NCBI GenBank assembly: GCA_020747065.1
Contig: JAGMVK010000018.1
Span: forward strand, 1,141,274 to 1,205,273
DNA from: Cadophora sp. MPI-SDFR-AT-0126
Lineage: Eukaryota; Ascomycota; Leotiomycetes; Helotiales; Ploettnerulaceae
Length of the DNA stretch: 64,000 bases
Reading direction: 5' to 3'
This document shows, one piece after another, positions 43,936-64,000 of this stretch. Within the stretch, counting starts at the first letter, position 1. Each line of letters begins with the position of its first letter. Below the pieces are notes generated by a model. That model made no database searches. It had not been told where the DNA came from and saw only the letters and a list, made by a program, of their open reading frames with translations. A program made the position numbers and the translations under genes.

Positions 43936-44580
43936 CACGACTCTCGGCTAAGAGCTTATTCGTAAGAGTATCTTATACTATATTCCAGAAGTTAATAAAG
44001 CTCTTAGTATTATTAATTTCCTAATCGCTATAAGTAACTTTGATTATATATAGTCTTATAAGTACTTCTTTAGCTTTAAAGAAGCTAATAATCTTAGAAG
44101 CTTATAGTTATATACTCTTATATAATTAGTAAGACTCTTTTATACTAAGGAAGTAGATATTTAATATCGCAAGCTTATAAGTAGAAAGAGAAAAAGATAT
44201 AGATATTTTATTACTCTTAGTAAAAGAAGTAATAATACTAGTATTAATATAATAATAGCTCTAGAGCTTAGTAGTACTAATAGAAATAATTTAATAAGGA
44301 ATAAGTATTTATACTTAAAAGATTACACGTATAGTTAAGCTCTAAAGGACTATATAAAGCTTTAGCTTATAGTCTATAGTAAAACTTTCTCTTATATAAG
44401 AAAAAGAAAGTCCTTTATATTAGATATAACTACTAAAGAGATCTGTGATTACTTTATTACTAATAAATAAAGAATACTAAGATTAAATTTTAGTAAGAGA
44501 ACTAATAGAGTATTATTACTAAGTATAGAAAGTACTCTTAAGAAATAAGAATCTAATAAAGCTTAAGGAAAATTAAAAGA

Positions 44581-44775
44581 TGTCGTGTAGTAGTGCGAGT
44601 AGGCTAGGTTAAAGAGATAAGATCTCCTAATTAGAGTAAAAGTATAATATAAAAAGATATATTTAAAAGAGCATTACCTCCTTAAGGGAGGGCCTAAGAG
44701 CATATTATATATACATAGTATACTTACTAAGTATATACTAGACCAGATATAATTTCTAATAAAGCGCGTTTAATA
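44581..44775 (+). repeat. Element X copy 1 (195-bp solo LTR-like)
   Basis: Starts TGTCGTG and ends in TAATA, the RIP form of CGACA. Exactly 195 bp, colinear with the other three copies. In its first 60 nt it differs from the copy at 52,041 by seven transitions, six of them CpA-to-TpA or TpG-to-TpA. No matching flanking duplication is seen (AAAGA versus TAGAG). Confidence 0.85.
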
Positions 44776-45685
44776 TAGAGGTATTATTATAAGAAGATAA
44801 AGATCTAGTAATAAGCTTAAGCTCGCTCTTATCTTTATTATTATTCTAAGTATATATTAGTATATAAGCTTTAAATAATTATAACTAAAGATAAATATAA
44901 GTATTTAAAAAAAGAAATAAACTTACTTAGACTACTTTACGAACCTAACTTATATTACTTAAATTAGTAACCTACTCTCTTATATAACGTGTAAGTTCAG
45001 TAACTCTACGATTATAATTAATAAAAAATCATGAAGAAGTTTTAGAAAGTATTTTAGAATAGTTTAGGGCTATAGTAATCTCTTTATATAAATTTAAAGA
45101 AGAAAAATAAGAGAAAAAGTACAGAACATAAAGAGCTATATAATATATTAAAAGCTTAAAGATTCAGAAGTATAAAAAAATCTAAGGTTAATATACCCTA
45201 AAAAGATATATAATCACCTAGGAAATACGTAATCACCTACTAATATATAGCTAATTAGAGCGCGCTATTATATACTGTTTACCGATTCACTTCCGATCTT
45301 CAGTGTACCTTCCTAAAAGATCACTAATTCACTTTGCCTTTATTAATTAATACTTATCTTAATTCGGCTACCTATATTTAGTAATTATAGAGCCTCACTT
45401 AAATTTAATAATAATTACTTATTTACGCGCTTCTTAATTCATATATAATTATAAACTGAATTACTTTATACGATTTTTAGAATTAAATCCTTTATTATTC
45501 TTTTAGTTATATTCTCGAACTAGATTATTCTATATATATATTCGCGATATAAAAACGCATTATACACTAGACTTATATAATCTTTATTTACTTGTTTAAT
45601 TATAATATATTTATTTATACTTCCTTTATAATTTAGGTATATATATTATAAACATATATTTATAATCGTTATACTTATTTAAGGA

Positions 45686-45729
<44 letters not shown>

Positions 45730-45806
45730 CTCGCTACTTTAGACTTAATCTTTATTTATATAAATCTAATAGTAAGACTCTTAAACTTAAGCTTACTATA
45801 AGAGTG

Positions 45807-46001
45807 TATTAAACGCGCTCTATTAGAAGTTATATCTAGTCTAGTATATACTTAGTAAGTATACTATATATATATAATATACTCTTAGGCCCTTCCTTAA
45901 GAAAGTAACTTTCTTTTAAATATATCTTTTAATACTATACTTTTACCTTAATTAAGAGATCTTATCTCTTTAACCCAGCTTACTCGCACTACTACACGAT
46001 A
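45807..46001 (-). repeat. Element X copy 2 (inverted, 195 bp)
   Basis: Reverse-complement copy of element X, heavily RIP-mutated, same length. No flanking duplication (GAGTG versus TAAGT), so it was probably joined here by rearrangement; its right side runs directly into a 3' fragment of the Gypsy element. Confidence 0.82.
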
Positions 46002-46257
46002 TAAGTACTATAATATATATAATAATAAGTAATTATAGCTTTACTAGACTTAATTTAAACGCCTTTTAGATAGCTTTATAGTTAAGTTACTACTTTACTT
46101 ATTACTACTATTATTATTAATTAGTACTACTAGATTAATACTTCTCTTAGAATCTCTTTATTAAAGCTATATATTTTTATTATTTTATATAATAATAATT
46201 TTATATAGAAATATAATTCAGAGCTTAAGAGTAAGCTCTCTTATAAGAGAGAGGTAA
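46002..46257 (+). mobile_element. Gypsy copy C, 3' internal fragment
   Basis: Matches about 61,155-61,409 of copy A, including the stretch before the 3' LTR (GAGCTTAAGAGTAAGCTCTC) and a purine-rich tract (AAGAGAGAGG) just before the LTR. The rest of copy C is missing. Confidence 0.8.
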
Positions 46258-46479
46258 TATAATATTAAAGTAATAGAAGTACTAGAAATAAAGGTACTTA
46301 AGTTTAGCTAAAATATTACTAAGTAGAAATCAGACTAGATTTATATATATATAAGACTACTTTCCCTCTAAGGATTCCTTACTTTCTTATTTCCTTTATA
46401 TCAGACTTATAATATTACTATTTACTTACCCTCTTACTCCTATACTTAATACTACACTTAGTAATATTACGTTGTTACA
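46258..46479 (+). repeat. Gypsy copy C, 3' LTR (222 bp)
   Basis: Same 222-bp length as the other LTRs of this family; starts TATAAT (RIP form of TGTAAC) and ends GTTGTTACA, so its end is better preserved than in copy A. Confidence 0.85.
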
Positions 46480-47134
46480 CTTAAAAGCGTTTATAATACT
46501 ATCTATCTCCTTTTTAATTTAATATCATTTTTATATTTAAATATATTAAAGAAAATATTAATAATAATTTATAATTATCTTTCTTTTTTATTATACTATT
46601 TAATTAGTATAATTTTATTTTATAAAATTAAATTCTCTAGAATTTAAACTATACTTTATTTTTATTTATAAAACTAAAAAAATATATATTATATTAAATA
46701 TTTTAAATTTAACTTAATATATAAAATATATCTATTTAAAAAAGAAATATAATATTAAAACACTTATAATAAATAATTAATAGATTTTAAGAAAGTTAAA
46801 ATAAATTAAATATAAATAAGTAATAAACTTATAATAAAATATATAATTAATATAAATTATAACTACGATTATTATTAATTAAATCGCTTTATATAATAAT
46901 ATAAGTTCTTAAAAAATAAAGAGTTAAAATATTTTATTATAAATGAAAAAATATAATTAAATTTAAAAAGTAAAAATATAAAAAATAATAAAAATAAAAT
47001 AAACTTCTATTACTTATTTATTTACTTTATTATTTAATAACCTTTTTAAATTCTTATTTATTAATAAAGTATTATTAATTTTAAAGACTCTTTTTTTATA
47101 AAAAAAAGTTTTATAAATAAAAACTCTATAATAA

Positions 47135-47266
47135 TTTAAAGTAATAAAAAATAAAAATAAAAATAAAAATAAAATAAAATAAAAATAAAAATAACAAATA
47201 AAAATAAAAATAAAATAAAATAAAAATAAAAATAAAAATAAAATAAAAATAAAAAATAAAAATAAA

Positions 47267-47297
<31 letters not shown>

Positions 47298-47300
47298 TAA

Positions 47301-47331
<31 letters not shown>

Positions 47332-47370
47332 TAAAAATAAAAATAAAAATAAAATAAAAATAAAAATAAA
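47135..47370. repeat. AAAAAT hexanucleotide microsatellite
   Basis: About 235 bp of AAAAAT/AAAAT units, about 200 bp downstream of the reductive aminase stop codon. A 97-codon minus-strand open frame here encodes only Phe/Leu/Tyr repeats and is an artefact. Confidence 0.9.
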
Positions 47371-47565
47371 TTTATATTCTCGTTGAAGACTCGATATATG
47401 AGGCTGAGGCCATACCTTGAAAGTTTCATTCTTTTCTTCCGTGACTAAGACTTCAAACAGTCGGTGCCAAATCGTCAGGATTGAATCAAGCTTCCATTTC
47501 GCCTCGCAGCAAAGTGGAGGGATGCAGAGACGAAGTTTAGTCTTTTCTACTGCAAACCCCTTCCC

Positions 47566-48426
47566 TTACAGAAATTCTCCTACTTGAGCAATTCCCCCAT
47601 CCCCTCCATGCTCCGCAATCACCTTGTCCACCAATTCACTGAAATACGTCAAGTTACCACTATCAACTCCCTCCTCCACACAAGTCTGAAGAATGTTCTT
47701 CAAAGCAATACCTTGCATCTCTACCGGATTTCCCAGAGACCCAAAAACCCCAGCATCAATCGACTTTGCCATTTCCGCAATGTAAGGCACTAGAGCTTGA
47801 AGCCATGGGATGAGCAATTGACTCACTCGAGGCTCTACTGAACCGCTCTTTTTCAACATCGCCATCGCAGTTATTGCTCCCGCAAACATCCCATACATTC
47901 CTGTCAGAAGAGAGAGATCATGAAGTGATGCTGCTCCTGAATCTTCACCAACATATTGAGTCTTTCCAAAGACATGGATAATATCCTTCACTGCTTTAAA
48001 TCGCTCCTCACTCTCACCACTGACAAAGATGAGTGAGGCAGGAGTTGCAACCATTTCGGGAGTAGCCATGATGCCCCCATCAAAATATTGTACAGCACCT
48101 CGTCGGTACAGCTCTTCTTTCATCTCTCGTGCCTGACGAGGTGTGCCGTTGGTGAGATTGATGACTGTTTTGGATTCCAATGAAAGCGACCCTAGGACAC
48201 TATGGATAGTTTGGTTGTCCAAGACGCAGATGATAATGACCGAGGACTTCGAGATGGCTGATGAGATGTCTGGTTCGAGCACCGCTCCTGCTTCAACGAG
48301 GGATGCAATGGCCGGTCGAGACGTTGTGCGGTTCCAGATGGTTACTTGCTTTCCGGCTTTCAAGAGAGCTTGGGCAAGGGCTGTGCCCATATTGCCGACG
48401 CCGAGGAGGGAGATTGTTGATGACAT
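47566..48426 (-). CDS. NADP-dependent imine reductase / reductive aminase family protein
   Basis: Intact single-exon gene, 286 aa, in a short island of normal base composition among dead transposons. Rossmann nucleotide site LLGVGNMGTALAQALLKAGK with WNR at 31-33 (Arg and Thr after beta-2 favour NADP). It strongly resembles fungal reductive aminases such as AspRedAm: VINLTNGTPRQA (Asn93), AASLHDLSLLTGMYG (Asp170, Tyr178), Trp208 in IPWLQALVPY, and EMQGI (Met237, Gln238), which line up with the residues reported for substrate binding in that family. Such enzymes reduce imines or couple ketones with amines; the natural substrate is unknown. Beta-hydroxyacid dehydrogenases share the fold but have a catalytic Lys where this has Asp170. 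No RIP damage is visible. Start ATG at 48426 fits the nucleotide motif. Confidence 0.93.
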   Translation of the reverse strand: MSSTISLLGVGNMGTALAQALLKAGKQVTIWNRTTSRPAIASLVEAGAVLEPDISSAISKSSVIIICVLDNQTIHSVLGSLSLESKTVINLTNGTPRQAREMKEELYRRGAVQYFDGGIMATPEMVATPASLIFVSGESEERFKAVKDIIHVFGKTQYVGEDSGAASLHDLSLLTGMYGMFAGAITAMAMLKKSGSVEPRVSQLLIPWLQALVPYIAEMAKSIDAGVFGSLGNPVEMQGIALKNILQTCVEEGVDSGNLTYFSELVDKVIAEHGGDGGIAQVGEFL

Positions 48427-48889
48427 GATGTGTTGATGTTGGGGAGGGAAGGCTGGGCTGGCTTAACATACTCTTCCTGCGAAAGCCGCTCTTTATATAG
48501 AAAATTGGAAAGATGTAGTACTTCGAATGAGAACATCATTCATAAGGGAATTGCTGCTCAAGAATTAGCCCGAGAGTTGAATATTGCATTCTCTATTTCT
48601 AAGCGCCAAGCTCAAATCTCTTGTCTCCGTTACTGCATTTCAGGACTTTGATTCTTAAGCACAATCTCTGGAGACAATAAGACGGGTCTCATTTCCATCC
48701 GAGACGTGCTGATGCAGCGATCCAAAGATGGATTGAAGAATTGATGACCCGAGCACTAGGATATCCAATGAACGCGCGACTTATGGTACAATACATCAAT
48801 TGTTTCTAACAAAGACGTTACGGCTCACATCTCCTTCCGATGACCTAATGAATCAGTGTATCTCTTGTTAATGGAAAGCGCTGTATAAA
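48427..48889. promoter_or_regulatory. Upstream region of the reductive aminase gene
   Basis: About 460 bp of moderate composition between the gene and the LINE relic. No additional gene; presumed promoter. Confidence 0.4.
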
Positions 48890-50941
48890 TTGTGGGTCAA
48901 AAATCAAAAATCATTAAAAGTTGGGGACCGCAAGAATTGGCTCCGCTCTGTGATGACACGGTACCTGCGAGTACAGCTTGGAGGGGCGCACAGCCACAAG
49001 CGTCTGGAAGTGAAGCCCGCTTAAAAGAATTAACTAAGAATTTAGCGACACGCAATTCGCCTTTACTATATACAGTAGCCCTGGAGGCAGTAATGGAACT
49101 CAGGCGGCTTAGGGGTCTCTCGCCATTAATAGCACGGCAGTTGTTTACTTCAATAGTCGCTCTAGCTATAGACTATGCCTCTAATATTTAGATACACGCC
49201 TTTAAAGATAAACTCATAGGACCTATTAATAGGGTCCAAAGAATAGGAGCGCAGGCGATTATAGGGACATTTATCACAGTAGTAATAAGTATTACAGAAG
49301 CAGAGGCCTATATTACTAGCGCATAAGACTGCTTCTAGAGATAAGTAGTTAAGTTATAGACAGATATTCACGCGCTACCCAAAACTAACTTACTTTGAAA
49401 GAATATATCTTAAATACGAAAGTTTAGAAAATAATATCGCTTACTACTTTACTAAGTAATAGAGGCACTTACAGATATAGCGATAGAGTATAATGGTCCG
49501 ATATTTACTCGTTGTAAATACAGAGGCTAGGGTTAATCTCTGATAATCAAGAAGTAGGTATATCACGTAGACAGTTAAAGACAGTTACTAGTACTAGGTA
49601 GGAATACTATTAAAGTTAAGTATAAAGCTCTTATCTAATAGTAGACGTGCTAGTCTTTATAGAACCTTCGTTCTCCTTAGATCTTCCGGGATCTAGTAAG
49701 ATCCCTAGATCTATCACGTGACCTAGACGCGGAAACCTACGGCTAATTCGCTGTGTTATATAATACTACTATAATAAAATACTATATGCTACGTATTTCT
49801 TAGACCCTTATTAGTTCCTGTGAGCTCTACTTCTAGGAGCTACTTGGCTCTCAGGAGTACGCCTGCTCAGAGGATATCCTCTCCTAGGGCCCCGCGAACC
49901 CCCAGGAGCGTTCGTAACATAGAGTAGCTAGAAACTATCAACTTATATACGTTAGTACTATAAGAGAAAAAAGTACAAACTATTACCGACGAATTAGTAT
50001 CGAGATAACTAGGCACAAATAAGGCAATACGTATCGCTGTAAGCAGTTCCGCACGAAATAAAGTAGTCGGAGTAAGTAGCGTGATTAAATTATATTAGTT
50101 AACACGTAGTAACTTAAGAGATAAGATCTCGTTCTTCTTCTCTACACTAAGTAAGAGAGAAGAATAAAACCCGTACTCTAGAGAGCTAGCAGCAATAGCT
50201 AATACTCTAAGTACACTAATACAGCTCAGATTTCGTCGAATTATATTAACAATAAGAAATAAAGCAGCTACACTTATACTTAAGAAGCTTCGATAATAAT
50301 CCGAATAAAAGTACATCAGCTATATCTATAAGTTAATAAGAGCCTTAAGAAGAGATAAGAACACGATAATAATCTTATAGCTCCTATTAAGTAAGGAAAA
50401 CGAACTTATAAAGCTTGCTAAAGAGAAGGTAAAAGCTGCAATAAGCTAAGGTATTATCCTATAGACACAGCTCCCTAGAATAAGATTAATAACTCTTAAT
50501 ATAGCGCGAGCTAAGTATAGCACTATAAGAGAGTTACTAGAAAACATTAGAAAACATTCTAAAAGAGTTAATATAGTATTACCTAGTAAATATATATAAT
50601 AGCTCTACGACTGACTATCGTAGAAAGAAGCTAATATACTTACCTAACTTAGAATAGATATAATAAGACTAAACGTCTATTTCCACCGAATTAAAGCTAT
50701 GTTAATAGATTAGTATAAATATAGATAAGCGCGTAAGATAGTAGATTACTTTCTCTTCTAGTACAGAAAGTAGATAGCGCATCGTACCAAGATACTATAA
50801 TATATAGATATAAGTAAAGGGAATATATCTTTCTACTTAAGCGGAAAGTCTCTAATAGATAATAAGAACTAGGCTTCGAATATAACGCTATTCGAGTAAT
50901 AATACAACTCGTATTAGCTATAGGTCGACTTAATACGAACT
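48890..50941 (+). mobile_element. Tad1-like LINE (non-LTR retrotransposon) relic, 3' part
   Basis: An open stretch to 49,191 (LEAVMELRRLRGLSPLIARQ, IVALAIDYASN) matches the C-terminal reverse transcriptase/thumb region of fungal Tad-clade LINEs. It continues with stops (INRVQRIGAQAIIGTF near 49,225). Further on, the RNase H-like region (YSRELAAIANTLSTL near 50,170) and a final zinc-binding segment (near 50,705-50,770) are readable in pieces. All are broken by stops and C-to-T changes. The 5' part is absent. The element is cut at 50,941 by the inverted Gypsy copy B. The span 49,650-49,900 is less A+T-rich and not assigned. Confidence 0.85.
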
Positions 50942-51163
50942 TGTAACGACGTAATATTACTAAGTGCAGTATTAAGTATAGGAGTAAGAGAGTAGGTAAG
51001 TAGTAATATTATAGGTTTAGTATAAAGGAAATAAGAAAGTAAGAAGCTCTTAAAGGAGAAGTAGTCTTATATATATATAAATCTAGTTTAGCTTTTATCT
51101 AGTAATATTCTAGCTAAATCTAAGTACTTTTATTTCTAGTACTTCTATTACTTTAATATTATA
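50942..51163 (-). repeat. Gypsy copy B, 3' LTR (minus orientation, 222 bp)
   Basis: Starts TGTAACGACG and ends TATTATA in plus-strand terms, the inverted form of the 222-bp LTR. Immediately after it comes the inverted purine tract (CTCTCTTTCT), as expected for a minus-strand element. Confidence 0.87.
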
Positions 51164-51743
51164 TTACTCTCTTTCTATAAGAGAGCTTACTCTTAAGCTT
51201 TAAATTATATTTTTATATAGAATTATTATTATATACAATAATAAAGATATATAGCTTTAGTAGAGAGATTTTAAAGGAAATATTAATCTAGTAATACTAA
51301 TTAATAATAGTAGTAATAGTAAGTAAGGTAATAACTTAATTATAAAATTATTTGAAAAGTATCTGAATTAAGTCTAATAAAGCTATAATTACTTATTATT
51401 ATATATATTATAATACTTAATAGTATAGATTTTTAGAATTCTAGCTTTTTTTTTTAAATAACTATAACTTTAAGCTCTATAAGTAAACCTTATATATAGA
51501 GATTTATTAATTTATATATATTACTAATATATTTTAATAGTTTATATTAAATAAAATAAGTAATTTAAGGGTAAGTTAAGTTCTGAATTCTTAGTAGTTT
51601 AGTAGTAATTTAGAATTAATTTAGTATATTAATATAAATAGTACTTACTCTAACTCTTATTAATACTCTTAAGTTTATTTATTATAAGTATTATATCTAA
51701 TATATCTACTTACTTACTATAGAACTAGATTATATTTATAAGT

Positions 51744-51938
51744 TATCGTGCAGTAGTGCGAGTAGGCTGGGTTAAAGAGACGAGATCTCCTAATTAGGGT
51801 AAAAGTATAGTATAAAAAGATATATTTAAAAGAGTATTACCTCCTTAAGGGAGGGCCTAAGAGTATATTATATATACATAATATACTTACTAAGTATATA
51901 CTAGATCAGATATAACTTCTAATAGAGCGCGTTTAATA
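51744..51938 (+). repeat. Element X copy 3, with TAAGT duplication
   Basis: 195 bp, starts TATCGTG (RIP of TGTCGTG). Flanked by perfect TAAGT on both sides (51,739-51,743 and 51,939-51,943). The flanks join to continuous copy-B sequence, proving insertion into B. Confidence 0.9.
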
Positions 51939-52040
51939 TAAGTTTAATAGCGCTAAAAGTAAGAAGTATATATATTATAAGAAGTAAGTAGAAAAATATA
52001 ATCTTATAAGTACTTCTTATTTCTTTTTCTTATATTTAGA

Positions 52041-52235
52041 TGTCGTGCAGTGGTGCGAGCAGGCTGGGTTAAAGAGACAAGATCTCCTAATCAGGGTAAA
52101 AGTATAGTATGAAAAGATATATTTAAAAGAGCGTTCCCTCCTTAAGGGAGGGCCTGAGAGCATATTATATATATATGGTATGCTTGCTAAGCATATACTA
52201 GACCAGATGCAACTTCTGACAGAGCGCGTTCGACA
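52041..52235 (+). repeat. Element X copy 4, best preserved, with TTAGA duplication
   Basis: 195 bp, TGTCGTGCAG..GTTCGACA, so TG..CA with 5-bp inverted ends TGTCG/CGACA. Flanked by TTAGA at 52,036-52,040 and 52,236-52,240. It has the highest G+C of the four and may be the youngest. It holds two self-complementary stretches (near CTCCTTAAGGGAG and TATGCTTGCTAAGCATA). Confidence 0.92.
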
Positions 52236-52512
52236 TTAGATTATTATAAATATAATTTAGTTATAATTTAAATAAGCTAAAATACTAATTTCTATATTAG
52301 ATTTTATATTATATAACTAAGGAATATTATAAGCTCTCTTTTACTATTACTACTAAAGATAATAAAAGTATTATTTCTATTACTTAAGAAATTAATACTA
52401 GATTATATATTACTATTACTAATACTTCTAAGATATAAAGTAAGTTATAATTAGAGTTATTAGAGGAAACTTATATTTTTTACTAAGTTATTATAAATCT
52501 AGCTATATAATA

Positions 52513-52657
52513 GGCTATAAGTTATTCTCTTTTCTTTTCTCTTTTCTTTTCTCTTTTCTTTTCTCTTTTCTTTTCTCTTTTCTTTTCTCTTTTCTTTTCT
52601 CTTTTCTTTTCTCTTTTCTTTTCTCTTTTCTTTTCTCTTTTCTTTTCTCTTTTCTTT
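52513..52657. repeat. 12-bp minisatellite CTCTTTTCTTTT
   Basis: About twelve nearly identical units inside copy B. The matching place in copy A (near 60,395-60,420) has only a short A/T-rich run, so the array expanded in B. It is strikingly regular despite RIP all around. Confidence 0.9.
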
Positions 52658-53905
52658 TATTATAAGTTTTACTTATAATTATCTTAATTTAAGATAGAGA
52701 TTTAATTATAGATATACTTATTTTTACTTAAGTAAAGTTTAAATAACTTCTAATTAATATATATTTAAAGTATAGTTTTAATCTTAAGCTAAATCTAAGA
52801 GAAGATTACTATTAGTACTATTGAAGTAGCTAAGAAGATTTATTATACTCTTAAATATAAGAGAGAAGAGAAGAATACTAGTAAGCTACTAGTAAGATTC
52901 TATATAAAAAAATATTTTAGTAATATAAAAGAGAATAAAGAGATTCTAAATAATTTAGAATAAAAAGAGAATAAGTCTTATTTTAGATTATCTTTATTAT
53001 TAATTCTTTATAGTTATATCTTTAATTAGACTTCTTATATAAAAGTAGCTTTTTATAGTAAAACTAGTAAGATATTCTAACTAAAGTATAGTTATAAGAT
53101 TATAATATTAGTATTTTAAATTAGAGAGTATTTAAATAATCTAAATTAAACTTTATTTTATTATCTTACTAATTAGTCTATTATCTTTTAAATAACTATA
53201 ATTTTTATTTTTTATTTTCTTATATAGCTAATTATTTAAGTAAGTTTTAGAGTAATCTTAAAATAGAAGAGTTAACTTAATAAAAATCTCTTAACTTATA
53301 AAGTGATTTTATTAAGTTAGATATATTATATTATATAGTATTAATATTATAGCTTACTTAATTAACTTAATACTTTAAGGTATTATAATATAATTATAAT
53401 ATAAGAACTTCTTATACTTCTTATTCTTCTTAATTCTTAATTATCTTAAAAGGGTTTTAAAGTTATTTCTAACTAAGTAAAAAGTTATTTAAGTCCTAGA
53501 ATAATAGCTTAAGAGTAAGTATATTATAAATATTTAATTCTATAAGTAACTAAAGTTAGTAAAAGTTCCTTACTTAATATAGAATTTTAAATAGCCCTTC
53601 TTATTAATTACTAAGCTTATAACTTAGTTAGTAACTCTTAAGGTTCTTAGTAAATAAGTATACTTTATTATTTACTTAGAAATTAATAGGTCTATAATAT
53701 TAATTTATAGCTTTTATTATATAATTTTATATAGCTTATATATTTAATTTAACTAACTCTTATAATTCTTTTATATATTCTATTATTACTTTAGTATTAT
53801 AATAATTAAGCTTTTCTAGAGAAGTAATAGCTTTAGAAGAGTTCTAATCTTAATTATTCTTTAGATCTAATCTGAATTTAAGTTAGTATATAGCTATACT
53901 AATAG

Positions 53906-54127
53906 TGTAACGTTGAAGTGACGGAAGTGCTGGAAATAGGGGTACTCAGGTTTAGCCGGAATATTACCGGATAGAAGCCGGACCAGATTCGTATATATAT
54001 AGGACCGCTCCTCCTATAAGGGCTCCTTACCTTCTTATTTCCTTTATACTAGATCTATAATATTACTATTTACTTACTCTCTTACTCTTATACTTAATAC
54101 TACACTTAGTAATATTATATTATTATA
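53906..54127 (+). repeat. Copy A 5' LTR (222 bp)
   Basis: TGTAACGTTG..TTATTATA. Its first about 115 bp keep many CpG and CpA/TpG sites that are mutated in the 3' LTR; its last 85 bp are more mutated than the 3' LTR. Confidence 0.92.
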
Positions 54128-57100
54128 TTAAATAAGAAGGTTACTCTTACTAGAGATAGCTTATATAATATCCTATTATCTAGAAGATATAATTAATTAA
54201 TTCTTATCTGAATTACTCTTAATTACTATTTTTAAAAAGTTAAGATTCTAGAGATCTCCTAAATAAACTAATAAACTAGGGTTTAGTTTTACTTATTATA
54301 AATTAATATAATTAAAGTAGAGTAATCTTTATTAATAGAGATTCTAAATAATCCTCTTTATATAAAGGCTACTATAAATAAATTTAAGGTATTATAACTA
54401 CTATTACTAAAATCCTTAAGTTTATAAAACTCTCTTAAACTACCTTTATTCCCCTTTAGAATATAATCGCGTAATTCCTACTACTTATAGAATTATAGCG
54501 TATAAAAACTACTCTAATACTAATATCCTTTACTAGGAAATTACGAAGTATTCCCTTAATACTCCTAGAACCCTTATTTTAGGCTATACTTAAATCACGC
54601 TTAAATCTTCTCTTATTCTTATTATAAATATTACTAATATAGTAAGTTTATCTAGCGGAGCTACTAATAATACTCTTAACTCTTTAACTCTAATTAGAAG
54701 CTTTTCTAGCTATAAGACTTAAAGTAATAAAGGTAAAGGTTATGTAAATTAAGATAAGAGAGACTTTAATAACCTAGATATATTAAGAGGAATTATTTAA
54801 TTTATAAAGAATTAAAATTATACTTAAGAAGCTTTTTTAACTTATATTAAGTAATTACTAATTTCCGCTTAAGCTACACTAATAGCACCCCTTACTAATC
54901 CTACTTTAATTCCCCTTAAAACCTTATTACTGATTATTTAATTAATAAAAAAAACGAATTAATAAGTTAAAGTAAACGTCCCTTATTTAAGCTAGAAAAT
55001 ACTCCCCTTACTATATATAAAGCGGAATCGGATATTCTTTAAGAACTTAAGGTATAGCTTATAAAAAAGATCTCTTTCTTAAATAAAGAAACTAATCTAA
55101 TATTTAAGTAATAGAAAGCTTTAGTTAAAGATTAATTAAAGGTTAATATAAGTTTTTATCTAAACGCTTAAGTATAGTAAGCTTTAATATAAGAATTAAT
55201 TACTAGCTTAGCTTACTCTTACTTAAAGCTTTAATACTTATTTAAAACTAATATATTCTAAATAGCTTAGAAAATAATTTCTTTACTAGAGACTTACTTC
55301 TTTACTAGAAATAAAGCTTATAAGGCTTATACTAAGTTTTTCAATATAAATATATAAGAACTAGATTATATATATAAAACCTTTATTTAATTTTATATAA
55401 GATTCTAGAATACTATAATTTAAGGAAATATAACTTATATAAAATAGTTCTTTTTTATATAGCTTAAAATTACTTTCTAGCTTTATACTACTATTATATT
55501 AATTAAGAGCTTATAATAAGATAATTATATAATAATAATAACTTATCTTATTTTAATTAATACTAATAAGTAATAGAATATATAATTTAACTTATTTCTT
55601 ACTAGCTTCTATAAATCAGATTCTTTCTAAAGGGTAGCTAAGTCAGGCTCCTTTTAAAAGACTTCCGGATTACTTACTTTTTAATTAGTACTTAAACTTA
55701 CTTCTTCTCCTAACGCTCTCTTTTACTACTACTTAATACTATAGACTTTCGTAACTCTTACCTTACTATATTAAGAGAATATATAGAAACCTTAGGGAGG
55801 TTCTAGTAACTTATAAATAAAGTATTATAAGTATAGAAAGTTTAGATACTATAAGTTAGATTATTTTAAATTAGTTAAGGTTTAAGTCCTTAATAAGGAG
55901 AAAATTAATAATAATACTAAAGAGATAATAGAGAGTAAGAAAGATTAAGTATAGGAAAATAAAGAAGCTTAGGAAAAGACCCTTTCTTAAGCTTATATAA
56001 ATATAATCTATTAAAACTTAATTTAAATTCTCTAATAAGGAGGAAGTAGTTTATAATTAATTATATACTTAGTATAAATAGATTAGGAGTTATACTCTCT
56101 ATATTAGTAGATACTAAAGTAAATAGTAAAGATTTAGCTCCTCTTATATATTATACTAATCTGTAATTTTCAGAACTTCGTTTAAAGCTACGCTACCTAC
56201 TATATATATCTATACTTAATAATTAATAGTTAATATATATATAACTATCTCCTTATAATCCTTAACTTAGGGAAATAAGATATAATAATAAGTATTAAAT
56301 AAATATATTAATTCTATCTTAAGTTATAGATAAACTAGAATTGATTTTTATAGCTATTTAATTACCTGCTTACTAAATAATAGTTTTAGGAGCTAATCTT
56401 ATTCTTTCTATATACGTAGCTCTCTCTATAATAAGACTACTAAAGTAATATAAACTGCAGAGATCTAGTAATCTAAAAGAATAAGATATAACAAAAATAT
56501 CTCTCCTTTATAGTTTAAATACTAGAAGAATATCTCCTTTAAGTTACTCTTAAACTAATCCTAATATTATTTCTTATAAGTAAAAGACTTTTATAAGTCT
56601 AAAAATTAAAATATAAATTATTAAAGGTATTATTTATATCTATATTTATCTATAAAATCAGTATAAACGCCTTCTATTTTAATATAAAACGTAAAGATAC
56701 TAAGTTCTTTTAAATCAGTATTTATAAGATAAACTATATTTTATAAGAATAATATAAACTAGAAGATCCTAATATAATTTAATTCCTATTTAAAAGGCTT
56801 CTGAAATAGTATTAATATCTAAAACTAGTATTTTTTAAAAAAGATATAGATATTCTTTTACTTTATTAATATTATAATTATAAGATTTATTTTAAGGAGC
56901 TACTACTTAATACCTACTTTTCTCTTTACTATTAATTAATAGAGGAGCGTAAAATAATAAAGGAGTACCTTTTAAAGAATCTAGATAAGAGTTTTATTAA
57001 ATTAAGCTAGAGTCTATTTATATTACTTATACTCTTTATTAAAAAGCCTAATAGAGGCCTACGATTCTATATTAATTATCGTAAGCTAAATACCCTTACA

Positions 57101-60100
57101 CAAAAAAACACTCATTTAATTTCCTAAATTAATAAACTCCTTACTAAAGTATTAAATATAAAGATATTTATAAAATTAGATATTTAAGTCGCTTTTAATC
57201 GTATCTGTATAAACCTAGCCTCTAAGGAGTATATTATGTTTTAAACTAGATATAGATTATATAAGTATAAGGTACTACTATTTAGCCTTTATAATAGACC
57301 TAGTATATACTAATATTATATAAATAATGTATTCCTTAACTACCTAGATAACTTCTATATAGCTTACTTAAATAATATCCTAATCTACTCTAAATCTATA
57401 GGGGAATACTAGGCTTATATAGAATCTATATTAAAGTGTTTAATAGAAGCCGGATTATAAGCTAATATTAAGAAATACGAATTCTATATCACTTATATTA
57501 AATACTTAGATTATATAGTAATTACTAAGGGTATTAAGGTAGATCTAGAGAAAGTTAAACTATTATATAACTAGAAGTACCCTAAGGCTATAATAGTTAT
57601 TAAGTTATACTTAGGGTTTTATAGCTTTTACTAATAATTCATATATAACTTTAGGCTTATTACTAAACCTTTATTTACGCTTACTTAACTTATAGTAGCC
57701 TGGAATTAGATAAAAGAGTATCGCGTTATATTTAAAGAGCTCTAAAAGTAGTTACTATTAATTTAATAGATTTACTATTTTTAGCTAGAATTACTTACTA
57801 AGTTAGAAATAAATACTTTTAATAAAGTAATCGCTAGAGTAGTATTATAATAATATAATAATAAATAATAATACTTACTTAGATTTTATTTATGTATACT
57901 TAATAATTATAAACTAAACTAGGAAATCTATAATAAAGAACTATATACTATTATAAAAAGCTTTATAAGTAGTGCTTAGAATTAATATCCCTTTAGAATA
58001 GAATTAAGGTATATTTAAACTACTACTCTTTAAAGTACTTTATAATTACTAAAGTACTTATTATTAAGTAAGCTTATTAGATAGAATTTCTCTCTAACTT
58101 TAATTTCTAAATTATATATACCCTTAGTAAAAATAACTAGAGAGTAAATATCTTAAGCTATTAAGAGTAGGATTTAGAAGTATAGAAATAAGTCTAGAAA
58201 AATAATTAAAGCTAAATCTTACTAGTACTAGAAAGCTTAACCCCTATATTAATTCTAAGCTAGTAGAATAGTTTATTTCCTCTATAGTTATAATATCTCT
58301 TTCACTATTAATTACTACTAAGGTAAAAGCTCTTCTAAATACTTCCTTAGACTCTTTTAACCTTATTAAAAAGCTTTATTAAGATAATTATATTACTTTT
58401 ACTAATATATAAAAATCTTTACTTAAATATTATTTAATTAAAGATAGACTTCTACTTTTTAAAAAATAATTTTATATATAATATAATACTTTCTTTTATA
58501 CTAAGTTAATTAAAGAAGTATATAACTAGTTATTTATTACTTACCTTAGTAAGTTAAAGATATATTAACTCTTAGCTTTAAAATACTACTAAGTTAGAAT
58601 AAGTTTAAATTATAATTAGTATATAAGAAATTACTAAGTTTATTAATTCTTATACTTTAAGTATTCTAAATAGTAAGGCCTTCTCTACTTATTACTAATT
58701 CTAAGTTATCTTATATAATATTTATATATAGATTATAAGGATTTCTTAAAAAATAAGTATAATTATAATAGAATCCTAGTATTTATTAATTACCTAGAAA
58801 AGGATTCTATAATAATTCCTTACTACTAAAATATTAATATATATAGTACTACTAAACTCTTTATCTAGTAAATCTACTAATTTAGATATATTCTAAAGTT
58901 AATTATATTAAATTAAGAACTATAATTTATCTTATTATTTTAGAAAAAGTTCTACTGAATTATTAGTATTAAAGTTAAGCTTTTTATAGTATATTATAAA
59001 GAGATTAATAGCTAGATAGAGATTATAAATAAATATATTAACTAAAGATTATAACTATTTATTAACTTTTACTAAAATAACTAAAGTAAACTAATTCTAT
59101 TAATAAATTAAGCCTAGATAATCCTTCCTTATACTTCTATTAGTATAGCCCTATACTAGCTTAAATTTAGATTAGATCTAAGGAATAGTTAAGATTAGAA
59201 CTCTCTTAAAGCTACTACTCCTTTAGAAAGACTTAATTACTATAATACTAAAGCAGTAGTAGAATATATAAAAGAGGCGTAGGAGTTAACTAAATTAAAT
59301 ATATAAGCTATATAAGATTATATAATAAAAGCTATAAACTAGTACTGCAGATCTATTAATTTCTATGTAAATAATAAAGTGTACTATTTACTAAGAACCT
59401 TAAAAGCTACTAACTAAGTCGTAAGCTTAGTAATTAATAGAAAGAGCTATTTAAAATTCTATATTAAGTAAGGAACTCTTACTAGCTCTAATTACTTATA
59501 AGATTAAATATTTATAATATATTTACTCTTAAACTATTATTCCGGGACTTAAATAATCCCTTACTTAGTTAGGAATAGCCTTAAAACCCTCCTAAAGTAA
59601 TTAAGAGATAAGAAGAATAAGAAGTATAAGAAGTTCTTATATCGCGATTATACTATAATACCTTAAAGTATTAAGTTAGTTAAGTAAGCTATAATCTTAA
59701 TACTATATAGTATAATATATCTAATTTAATAGAGTTACCTTATAAATTAAGAGATTTTCACTAAATTAACTCTTCTACTCTAAGACTACCTTAAAACTTA
59801 CTCGAATAATTAGTTATATAAGAAAATAGAAAAGATAACTATAGTTACTTAAAGATAATAGATTAGTTAGTAAGATAATAAAATAAAGTTTAATTTAGAT
59901 TATCTAAATACTCTCTAATTTAAAGTACTAATACTATAGTCTTATAATTATACCTTAACTAAAATATCTCACTAGTTTCACTATAAGGAGCTACTCCTAT
60001 ATAAGAAGTCTAATTAAAGATATAGCTATAAAAAACTAATAATAAAGCTAATCTAAATAGGGCTTATTCTCCCCTTATTCTAAGTTATTTAGAATCTCCT

Positions 60101-60514
60101 CTTCCTCTCCTACGCTACTAGGGCGTCTACTACTTCGAGTTACCTAGAAACAGGCTAGTAACTCTCCCTCCTCTTCCCCCTTTACTCTCTTATACTTAAT
60201 ATTACTATAACGAACGGTCTTAGCTAATTTAATAGCACTAGTAGTAATCTCCTCTCGGATTTAGCTTAGGGCTAAAACTAGACCCTATTTATATATTAAT
60301 CGAAAGTTATTCTAATCTTACTTAAGGAAAAATAAGTATATCTAGAACTAGATCTTTATCTTAGATAAAGATAATTATAAGTAAAACTTATAATAAAAGA
60401 AAAAAATAAAAGAAAAGGAGGTAACTTATAGTTTATTATATAGCTAGATCTGTAATAATCTAGTAAAAAGCACGGATTTCCTCTAATAACTCTAATTATA
60501 GCTTACTTTATATC

Positions 60515-60585
60515 TTAGGGGTATTAGTAGTAGTAATATATAATCCGGTATTAGTAGCAGTAATATATAATCCGGTATTAATCTC
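60515..60585. repeat. Two-copy tandem duplication of about 29 bp in copy A
   Basis: GGTATTAGTAGTAGTAATAT..ATCCG followed by the same with one change. Only a single trace of this unit is visible in the inverted copy B, so it probably arose in A or its recent parent. Confidence 0.7.
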
Positions 60586-61394
60586 TTAAGAGGTAAAAAT
60601 AATACCCTTATTATCTTTAGTAGTAATAGTAAGGGAGAGCTTATAATATTCCATAGTTATATAGTACGGAATCTAATATAGAAATTAGTATTTTAGCTTA
60701 TCTAGATTATAATTAGACTATATTTATAATAATCGGGATTTAGGAAAAGGAAATAAGAAGTACTTATAAGATTATACTTTTCTACTTATTTCTTATAGTA
60801 CATATACTTCTTACTTCTAGCACTATTAAACTTATAAATATAGTCTAGTTCTATAATAAGTAGGCGGATATATTAGATATAATACTTATAGTAAGCGAAC
60901 TTAAGGGTATTAATAGGGCTTAGAGTAAGTACTATTTATATTAATATACTAAATTAATTCCGAATTACTACTAAATTACTAAAAATTTAGAACTTAATTT
61001 ACTCTTAAATTACTTATTTTATTTAATATAAATTATTAAAATATATTAGTAATATATATAAATTAATAAATCTCTATATATAAGGTTCACTTATAGAGCT
61101 TAAAGTTATAATTATTTAAAGAAGAAAGTTAGAATTCTAAAGATCTACGCTATTAAGTACTATAACACGTATAATAGTAAGTAATTATAGCCTTACTAGA
61201 CTTAGTTTAGATACCTTTTAGATAGCTTTATAGTTAAGTTACTACCTTACTTACTACTACTATTATTATTAATTAGTACTACTAGATTAATACTTTTTTT
61301 AGAATTTCCCTACTAAAGTTATATATCTTTACTATTTTATATAATAATAATTCTATATAGAAATACGATTTAGAGCTTAAGGGTAAGCTCTCTT

Positions 61395-61409
61395 ATAAGA
61401 AGGGAATAA
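61395..61409 (+). promoter_or_regulatory. Polypurine tract of copy A
   Basis: Purine-rich ATAAGAAGGGAA just before the 3' LTR, the expected primer site for plus-strand synthesis; a matching tract precedes the LTR in copies B and C. Confidence 0.65.
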
Positions 61410-61631
61410 TATAATATTAAAGTAACAGAAGTACTAGAAATAAGGGTACTTAGGTTTAGCCGGAATATTACTAGACAGAAGTCGGACTAGATTTATATAT
61501 ATATAGGACTACTTCCTTTATAAGGGCTCCTTACCTTCTTATTTCCTTTGTACTAGACTTATAATATTACTATTTACCTACCCTCTTACTCCTATACTTA
61601 ATACTGCACTTAGTAATATTACGTTATTATA
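61410..61631 (+). repeat. Copy A 3' LTR (222 bp)
   Basis: Exactly the same length as the 5' LTR, with only transitions between them. Its 5' part is heavily RIP-mutated (TATAATATT), while its end keeps C/G at places lost in the 5' LTR. Confidence 0.92.
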
Positions 61632-64000
61632 AATAGAAATATAAGGAAAAGTTATTTAAGCTTAATCTATTAATAGAATTAGCTTACTCTAGTTATTTTA
61701 GTAAAAGTTAATAAATAAGTATAATCTTTAGTTAATATATTTATTTATAATCTTTATTTAGTTATTAGTCTTCTTATAATATACTATAGAGAGCTTAATT
61801 TTAATACTAATAATTCAGTAGAATTCTTTTTAAAATAATAAGATAAACTATAGCTTTTTATCTAATATAATTAACTTTAAAGTATATTTAAATTAGTAGA
61901 TCTATTAGATAAAGAGTTTAGTAGTACTATATATATTAATATCTTAGTAGTAAAGAATTATTATAAAATATTTTTTTAAGTAATTAATAAATACTAGGAT
62001 TTTATTATAGCTATACTTATCCTTTAAAAAATCCTTATAATTTATATATAAATATTATATAAGATAACTTAGAATTAATAGTAAGTAAAGAAGACTTTAC
62101 TATTTTAAGTACTTAAAGTATAAGAATTAATAAGCTTAGTAATTTCTTATATATTAATTATAGTCCGAACTTATTCTAACTTAATAGTACTTTAAAGCTA
62201 AGAGTTAATATATCTTTAACTTATTAAAGTAAGTAATAAATAACTAATTATATATTTCTTTAATTAACTTAGTATAAAAGAAAGTATTATATTATATATA
62301 AAATTATTTTTTAAAAAGTAGAAGTCTATCTTTAATTAAATAATATTTAAGTAAAGATTTTTATATATTAGTAAAAGTAATATAGTTATCTTAATAAAGC
62401 TTTTTAATAAAGTTAAAAGAATTTAAGGAAATATTTAAAAGAGTTTCTACTTTAATAGTAATTAATAATAAGAAAGATATTATAATTATAAAAGAAATAA
62501 AATATTTTATTAAGTTAGAATTAATATAAAAATTAAGTTTTTTTTAAAACTAATAGAATTTAACTTTAATTATTTTTCTTTACTTATTCTTATATTTCTA
62601 GATATTATTCTTAGTAGCTTAAGATATTAGCTTTTTAATTATTTTTACTCAAAGTATATATAATTTAGAAATTAAAGTTAAAAAGAAATTTTATTTAATA
62701 AGCTTACTTAGCTATAAGTACTTTAATAAATATAAAATATTCTAAAGAGTAGTAATTTAAATATACTTTAATTCTATTTTAAAAAAATATTAACTTTAAG
62801 TATTACTTATAAAAGCTTTTTATAATACTATATAATTCTTTATTATAGATTTCCTAATTTAGTTTATAACTATTAAATATATATAAGTAAAAACTAAGTA
62901 AGTATTATTATTTATTATTATGATATTATAATATTACTTTAGTAATTATTTTATTAGAAGTATTTATTTCTAACTCAATAAGTAATTCTAGCTAGAAATA
63001 GTAAATTTATTAAATTAATAATAATTACTTTTAGAACTTTTTCAATATAATATAATACTCTTTTATTTAATTCTAAGTTATTATAAATTAAGTAAGTAAA
63101 AATAGAAGTTTAGTAATAAGCTTAAAGTTATATATAAATTATTAGTAAATACTATAGAACTTTAAGTATAACTTAATAATTATTATAATCTTAAAGGACT
63201 TCTAATTATATAATAATTTAACTTTCTTTAGATTTACTTTAATACTCTTAGTAATTATTATATAATTTAAGGACTTAATATAAGTAATATAGAATTTATA
63301 TTTCTTAATATTAGCTTATAATCTAGCTTTTATTAAATACTTTAATATAGATTTTATATAAGTTTAATATTCTTTTATAGATTTAAAGTAAATTAGAATA
63401 TTATTTAAATAAGTTATATAAAAGTTATTTAAGTAATTAAGAAATATATTATTTATATAATATTAGTATATATTAAGTCTATTATAAAAGCTAAATAATA
63501 GTACTTTATACTTATATAATATATATCTTAAAGACTAGATTTATATAAATATAATTAGAAGTAGTTTAAATATCTAATTTTATAAATATCTTTATATTTA
63601 ATATTCTAATAAAAAGCTTATTAATTTAGAAAATTAAATAAGTATTTTTTATATAAAAGTATTTAATTTATAATAATTAATATAAAATTATAAGCTTTTA
63701 TTAAGCTTTTTAATAAAGAATATAAGAAAAATAAATAAGTTTTAGCTTAATTTAATAAAACTCTTATTTAGATTCTCTAAGAAAATACTATTTATATAAA
63801 AATAATAAGATTAGCTATTAAGACTATTATTTAATAAATAAATAATTAGATAACTATAAAAATTAATTCTAGTTTATTTATAACTTAAGGTAAAATTAAT
63901 ATATTTATTTAATACTTATTATTATATTTTATTTTCTTAAAATAAAAATTATAAAAGAATAATTATATATATATTAAATTATTAAGTAAAAATATATAAT

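What the first reader, a model, noticed from the sequence alone, without database searches (positions are those of the whole stretch)
50942..64000. Readable order of nested retroelement insertions
A LINE relic is cut by inverted Gypsy copy B; B is cut by two X elements (TAAGT, TTAGA duplications) and by complete Gypsy copy A (AATAG duplication). Removing the inserts rejoins B into a sequence colinear with the reverse complement of A. This gives a strict relative order: LINE, then B, then X and A.
Basis: seen in the sequence. Interest (0 to 1): 0.75.

Follow-up and report, generated by a model that had tools for sequence, protein, structure and literature searches.

The report
Nested, mutated retroelements in a fungus
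In what looks like a fungal genome, several copy-and-paste genetic parasites have jumped into one another in an order that can be read from the sequence, and two mutation counts agree on which Gypsy copy is older; the arrangement is real but of an ordinary, well-known kind.

Summary
Copy B (50942 to the window end, minus strand) is interrupted by three inserts with exact 5-bp duplications. Compared piece by piece, B is colinear with A and with a C36 paralogue, except that B lacks about 545 bp at 63781-63792. B begins where three LINE paralogues run on. The order LINE, then B, then X1, X2 and A is supported.

New here:
- X1 and X2 are solo LTRs of an ~8.4-kb Ty1/Copia element.
- The LINE holds another probable solo LTR, Y, 49489-49919.
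[quoted passage not shown]).
- B looks older than A by two counts: at transitions B has the mutated base at 429 sites, A at 118; private transversions are 45 against 3 in 4,614 columns.
- X1 looks RIP-mutated, X2 hardly.

The contig ends inside B, so B's second LTR cannot be checked. This is an ordinary nested, RIP-mutated retroelement island.

The parts
49085..49488 (+). LINE relic, first part (5'-truncated copy); last 5 bases are the left copy of Y's duplication TAGAG
   Evidence: 79.6% over 401 bp to paralogue L024; residues 64-100 of the stop-free piece 48889-49188 match a reverse-transcriptase ORF in L073, 68% over 37 aa, E 2e-14
49489..49919 (.). Y: probable solo LTR, 431 bp, starts TATAATG and ends CGTAACA, duplication TAGAG at 49484-49488 and 49920-49924
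   Evidence: absent from paralogue L024; 45 listed matches in the genome, itself included, 15 of them ending exactly at 49919; duplication and ends
49925..50941 (+). LINE relic, second part, to the B junction; GAACT 50937-50941 is the expected left duplication of B
   Evidence: 77.5% over 1013 bp to L024 and 85.2% over 386 bp to L025; L024 and L025 match each other in one piece across this point; L061 read by eye
50942..51743 (-). Gypsy copy B, piece 1: 3' LTR (50942-51168) and adjoining interior; last 5 bases TAAGT
   Evidence: 88.6% to A 60829-61624
51744..51938 (.). X1: Copia solo LTR, 195 bp, ends TATCG...TAATA, looks RIP-mutated
   Evidence: duplication TAAGT; (CpA+TpG)/(ApC+GpT) 0.32; family
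51944..52040 (-). Gypsy copy B, piece 2; last 5 bases TTAGA
   Evidence: 90.9% to A 60738-60836
52041..52235 (.). X2: Copia solo LTR, 195 bp, ends TGTCG...CGACA, little mutated
   Evidence: duplication TTAGA; (CpA+TpG)/(ApC+GpT) 1.29 against 1.28 in window 1-43000
52241..53905 (-). Gypsy copy B, piece 3, with a TTTTC-type simple-repeat run near 52540-52660; last 5 bases AATAG
   Evidence: 79.7% and 83.7% matches to A 59137-60734
53906..61631 (+). Gypsy copy A, 7726 bp, both LTRs present (53906-54132 and 61405-61631)
   Evidence: duplication AATAG; reverse-transcriptase match PF00078 at 57038-57514 with 6 stops; uninterrupted against the C36 paralogue
61637..64000 (-). Gypsy copy B, piece 4, lacking about 545 bp at 63781-63792, cut by the end of the contig
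   Evidence: 85.9% and 83.0% to A 56972-59141 and 56203-56414; deletion; contig C10 has 1205273 bases = window position 64000

Best explanation
This is a stack of successive retrotransposon insertions in an AT-rich island of what is most likely a filamentous-fungus genome. A 5'-truncated LINE landed first. A Ty3/Gypsy element (B) then integrated into it in reverse orientation. Two Copia elements later integrated into B and each shrank to one LTR, most simply by LTR-LTR recombination. A second copy of the same Gypsy family (A) also integrated into B. Another LTR element, now probably also a lone LTR (Y), integrated into the LINE at an unknown time relative to B. Repeat-induced point mutation (RIP) changed C to T on both strands of these repeats, B most, A and X1 less, X2 little. 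Shown: boundaries, duplications, order and orientation of pieces, uninterrupted paralogues, direction of base changes, transversion counts. Inferred: recombination as the origin of the solo LTRs, RIP as the cause of the transitions, the host being a fungus, and any absolute time.
For: Exact 5-bp duplications. B pieces colinear with A and with the C36 paralogue. LINE paralogues read through B's left junction. X family: 10 same-strand pairs 8237-8288 bp apart among 41 listed matches; 6 of 13 PF07727 (RVT_2) matches compared lie inside a pair; the C19 pair is flanked by TAACT on both sides. At A/B transitions B has the mutated base at 429 sites and A at 118, in 4616 columns. Private transversions in 4614 common columns: A 3, B 45, C36 paralogue 6. 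(CpA+TpG)/(ApC+GpT) is 0.03-0.11 in A and B's larger pieces and 0 in the 97-bp piece 2, against 1.28 in window 1-43000. Of C's that X2 keeps, X1 has T at 16 of 22 CpA and 0 of 32 CpT.
Against: B's second LTR and right-hand GAACT are not in the assembly, so 'B cut the LINE' rests on one junction plus paralogues. B is not fully colinear: it lacks about 545 bp. No rve, Integrase_H2C2 or RT_RNaseH_2 match falls in A itself. B's extra transversions could partly predate its insertion if B came from an older subfamily, and 11 of the 54 counted lie in one 210-column block beside the simple repeat. Copies L012-L022 were chosen as B's best matches and L002-L008 as A's, so rankings of RIP load among copies are biased; in A's 5' region A is more mutated than 6 of 7 distinct copies.
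Confidence: 0.93

Rival explanations
1. A and B arose as an inverted duplication or rearrangement of one Gypsy copy rather than by two insertions.
For: A and B are the same family in opposite orientation and lie together.
Against: A has two LTRs and an exact AATAG duplication inside B, and B continues in register on both sides at A 59137-59141. A differs from the C36 copy by 10 transversions but from B by 58 in 4614 columns, which a local duplication would not give.
Confidence: 0.03
2. X1 and X2 are short non-autonomous elements (SINE- or TRIM-like) and not Copia solo LTRs.
For: They are 195 bp and lone; 21 of the 41 listed copies have no partner in the list, though only 40 of 61 candidates were scored.
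Against: TG...CA ends and 5-bp duplications; 20 of the 41 form 10 pairs, 6 of which enclose RVT_2; the C19 pair is flanked as a unit by TAACT, and the C35 pair by ATAAA if one changed end base is allowed (flanks read by eye).
Confidence: 0.01
3. The AT bias comes from ordinary mutation pressure or CpG deamination in silent DNA, not RIP.
For: Among C's that A keeps, CpG is the class most often T in B (61 of 64), ahead of CpA (30 of 36), CpC (57 of 149) and CpT (280 of 760); in the reverse direction 3 of 6 CpG, 8 of 14 CpA, 8 of 30 CpC and 99 of 643 CpT.
Against: CpA/TpG are almost emptied in A and B, and X1 against X2 shows a CpA preference: 16 of 22 CpA, 4 of 12 CpG, 2 of 17 CpC, 0 of 32 CpT. 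X2, in the same island, is little mutated. C5 DNA methyltransferase matches exist at five places, though none was shown to be the RIP enzyme RID.
Confidence: 0.12

Closest known systems
Ty3/Gypsy LTR retrotransposons of filamentous ascomycetes
   Same: 5-bp duplication, TG...CA LTRs, RVT_1-type reverse transcriptase; A-family copies on C4 (near 1.51 Mb) and C24 (near 105 kb) have RT, RNase H and integrase H2C2 matches in Gypsy order
   Different: I did not match this family (7.7 kb, 227-bp LTR) to a named element
Ty1/Copia retrotransposons
   Same: RVT_2 reverse transcriptase between X LTRs about 8.2 kb apart
   Different: in the finding's interval only solo LTRs are present
Non-LTR LINE (Tad1-like by recollection)
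   Same: copies end at a common 3' end and start at different places; a relative carries RVT_1 in a long open frame
   Different: the relic lacks the reverse-transcriptase part; clade not tested
RIP-mutated AT-rich isochores with nested insertions, e.g. Pyrenophora teres (PMC5915480, passages read)
   Same: AT-rich repeat regions between GC-equilibrated gene regions, LTR elements dominant, nested insertions and RIP named together
   Different: the passages name nesting as a problem for comparing elements; here it is read as an order at one locus
Separating transitions from transversions in RIP-affected regions (Cladosporium fulvum, PMC10823647, passages read)
   Same: RIP-affected regions vary by transitions, hardly by transversions
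   Different: there it is diversity among five isolates; here it compares copies of one element
Nested retrotransposons used for relative dating in maize (recalled, no paper seen)
   Same: order of insertion read from which element interrupts which
   Different: here RIP makes raw LTR divergence unreliable as a clock

Membership tests
Ty3/Gypsy (A and B) | two direct LTRs and a short target duplication around a complete copy | tested here: met
   A: LTRs 53906-54132 and 61405-61631, AATAG
Ty3/Gypsy (A and B) | RVT_1-type reverse transcriptase | tested here: met
   PF00078 match at window 57038-57514, 55.8 bits; none listed in B
Ty3/Gypsy (A and B) | order reverse transcriptase, RNase H, integrase | tested here: inconclusive
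   seen in A-family copies on C4 (RT 1509864, RNase H 1510470, H2C2 1511238, +) and C24 (RT 104996, RNase H 104525, H2C2 103883, -); no PF00665, PF17921 or PF17919 match in A itself
Ty1/Copia solo LTR (X1, X2) | LTR ends TG...CA and 5-bp duplication | tested here: met
   X2 TGTCG...CGACA with TTAGA; X1 with changed ends and TAAGT
Ty1/Copia solo LTR (X1, X2) | the same LTR flanks full elements that carry RVT_2 | tested here: met
   6 of 10 pairs enclose a PF07727 match; 13 of 14 PF07727 rows compared; C19 pair flanked by TAACT
LTR-element solo LTR (Y) | LTR ends, duplication, paired copies around a coding interior | tested here: inconclusive
   duplication TAGAG and ends TATAATG...CGTAACA; among 37 of the 45 listed matches, two same-strand pairs 3-15 kb apart (C37 9.4 kb, C20 14.9 kb); on C37 same-strand RT and RNase H matches lie between, and also an RNase H match on the other strand
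LINE | 5'-truncated copies with a common 3' end | tested here: met
   9 of 10 matches (all but the source copy) end at query positions 320-328 and start anywhere from 1 to 271
LINE | non-LTR reverse transcriptase | tested here: inconclusive
   RVT_1 at 3.9e-29 in relative L073; the window holds only a downstream part, tied to it by a 37-aa match and a 64% DNA match in L065; two stop-free LINE pieces gave no Pfam match
RIP | C-to-T changes preferring CpA, on both strands of repeats | tested here: met
   clearest for X1 against X2, where 16 of 22 CpA and 0 of 32 CpT are changed
RIP | RID methyltransferase and action in the sexual cycle | not tested
   C5-methyltransferase family matches at five places, none assigned to RID

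The most novel reading that the evidence does not exclude
The nested layers record more than one phase of RIP at one locus. B has lost CpG, CpT and CpC beyond the CpA loss it shares with A. X1 was RIP-mutated while still part of a long repeat. X2 arrived and shrank to a solo LTR after RIP had passed, or while escaping it. Nesting plus transversions would then calibrate how RIP load grows with age.
Probability: 0.35. Interest if true: 0.35.

Novelty: new member of a known kind. Interest (0 to 1): 0.2.

Why it matters
RIP makes raw LTR divergence an unreliable clock in many fungi. A locus where the order is fixed by nesting lets one check whether RIP load and transversions rank the copies correctly; for A and B here both do. 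Otherwise it is an ordinary repeat island.

Tried and rejected
Looked for B's missing right half. The contig ends at window position 64000. A search with B's last kilobase found no other match above 88% identity, so no contig end in perfect overlap; 40 of 112 candidates were scored. A search with the LINE continuation beyond the B junction gave 10 matches; of these, 8 fetched loci (L059-L066) were compared with the Gypsy LTR and none carries it in the fetched flanks; L067 and L068 were not compared. The last 2 kb hold no TTAGGG or CCCTAA, so the contig end does not look like a telomere.

A has no stop-free piece of 45 aa or more on its plus strand. Two stop-free LINE pieces, one in the window and one in L024, gave no Pfam match. 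An rve integrase match in A was sought and not found. A local inverted duplication of one Gypsy copy was considered and rejected on transversion sharing.

Literature: searches for nested insertion, insertion time or order of insertion together with RIP terms gave no paper. One gave a single paper on Copia diversity, one gave 8 papers, mostly on fungal genomes, one gave 12 listed of 185, which looked unrelated except one on Pseudocercospora genomes, one gave 3 fungal papers. Passages only were read in PMC10823647, PMC4994206, PMC5445492 and PMC5915480; the rest were seen as listings. I do not claim that this way of dating is unpublished.
Full report
Setting. The window is the last 64 kb of a 1.205-Mb contig of a 54-Mb, 38-contig genome. 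In 1-kb steps, 1-44000 has 46-54% G+C, 44001-48000 has 15-30% and 49001-64000 has 11-38%.

Checking the observation. X1 (51744-51938) lies between two TAAGT, X2 (52041-52235) between two TTAGA, and A (53906-61631) between two AATAG. Two random 5-mers of the island match with frequency 0.0053. A's two LTRs are 227 bp; they align at 85.6% with 32 transitions and no transversion in 222 columns. Comparing A with the left and right parts of B separately gives 11 matches: six reversed, in order, at 79.7-90.9%; one of A's other LTR; and four short ones out of register, two of them on the plus strand. Across X1 the two neighbouring matches overlap by 8 bp on A, across A by 5 bp, as a duplication requires; across X2 they abut with 3 bp between. 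As a control, an unlinked copy on C36 aligns with A in one match over 7.7 kb and shows the same block order against B, so the interruptions belong to B. B also departs from A in two places without an insert: a simple-repeat run near 52540-52660, and about 545 bp missing at 63781-63792, present in A, in the C36 copy and in 7 of 11 further copies tested.

The left junction. The sequence left of B matches other copies (77% over 1013 bp on C12, 85% over 386 bp on C1). The C12 and C1 copies match each other in one piece across the point where B begins, and the C8 copy also continues (partly by eye). In the C1 copy GAACT is followed by more LINE, in the window by B's LTR end TGTAACG. Nine of ten matches to the continuation (all but the source copy) end at nearly the same place and begin at different places, the pattern of a LINE. 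A relative on C12 carries RVT_1 in a long open frame, and a 37-residue stretch of the window's relic matches that frame at 68%. So 'LINE relic' is well supported, although the window holds no polymerase part.

Between the two LINE parts lies a 431-bp insert, Y (49489-49919), absent from the C12 copy, with TAGAG on both sides. It has 45 listed matches, itself included (40 of 85 candidates scored), 15 of them ending exactly at Y's right end. A pair 9.4 kb apart on C37 encloses same-strand RT and RNase H matches. Y is most likely a solo LTR, not proven. X1 and X2 are solo LTRs: among 41 listed X matches (40 of 61 candidates scored), 20 form 10 same-strand pairs 8237-8288 bp apart, and 6 of 13 RVT_2 matches compared lie inside such pairs. 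The C19 pair is flanked by TAACT on both sides, as a full element should be. RVT_2 marks Ty1/Copia. X1 and X2 have different duplications, so they are two insertions, each followed by loss of the interior (inferred: LTR-LTR recombination).

Mutation by RIP. In A and in B's larger pieces the ratio (CpA+TpG)/(ApC+GpT) is 0.03-0.11, in the 97-bp piece 2 it is 0, against 1.28 in window 1-43000. The A/B differences are one-sided: of 547 transitions in 4616 columns, B has the mutated base at 429 and A at 118 (the nominal p of 1.8e-42 overstates, since RIP hits come in groups). In one 780-bp region B has the lowest G+C (0.123) of 14 copies compared (A 0.24, the others 0.18-0.28), but 11 of these were picked as B's best matches. 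In A's 5' region A is more mutated than 6 of 7 distinct copies (eight rows, two of them the C36 copy), which were picked as A's best matches. So A is not the least mutated of its family.

A count that RIP does not drive. RIP makes transitions, so transversions are a fairer age measure. In 4614 columns shared by A, B and the C36 copy, private transversions are 3, 45 and 6. B thus has roughly ten times as many as either, in agreement with the nesting. Some of B's excess may predate its insertion if B came from an older subfamily, and 11 of the 54 A/B transversions lie in one 210-column block beside the simple repeat. No absolute date is given.

Order that can and cannot be read. Fixed: LINE before B; B before X1, X2 and A; LINE before Y. 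Not fixed by nesting: Y against B, and X1, X2 and A among themselves. X2 has a gene-like ratio (1.29) and X1 a RIP-like one (0.32), with 22 mutated bases on X1's side and 2 on X2's. The simplest reading is that X1 was RIP-mutated, perhaps while still full-length, and X2 came later or escaped. X2 is not wholly untouched: two copies on C6 keep 9 and 10 C/G that X2 has lost.

What could not be done. B's second LTR and the right-hand GAACT lie beyond the contig end, and no other contig was found to carry them. Gypsy domain order is seen in family members on C4 and C24 but not in A itself.

Comparison. AT-rich isochores rich in Gypsy and Copia elements, with nested insertions and RIP, are described in PMC5915480 (passages read), and separating transitions from transversions in RIP-affected regions in PMC10823647 (passages read). 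The arrangement is thus a new example of a known kind. Its small value is that nesting, RIP load and transversions agree for A and B at one locus.

Noticed in passing
43950-47370: A second AT-rich island holds an X LTR (44581-44770, +), an inverted X LTR (45812-45999) and a 3' fragment of the A Gypsy family with its LTR (45992-46485); by eye neither X has a matching 5-bp duplication, so this island looks rearranged or truncated.
   Followed up: partly
49489-49919: A 431-bp probable solo LTR (Y) inside the LINE with TAGAG duplication, of a family with 45 listed matches in the genome.
   Followed up: yes
63781-63792: B lacks about 545 bp that A (56415-56971), the C36 copy and 7 of 11 further copies have: a deletion in B, or in its source.
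   Followed up: partly
52540-52660: A TTTTC-type simple-repeat run inside B that falls between the aligned blocks with A.
   Followed up: no
genome G000: C5, C10, C13, C18, C23 (two), C34 (1341-aa frames) and C3, C8, C22, C23, C38 (1300-aa frames): Other RVT_1 families have several copies with long uninterrupted frames and equal scores, so probably recent and not RIP-mutated, beside heavily mutated ones. RIP may now be rare, or sex may be.
   Followed up: no
47566-48426: Between the two islands sits an uninterrupted frame on the minus strand with dehydrogenase and reductive-aminase-like domains (PF03446, PF21761).
   Followed up: partly
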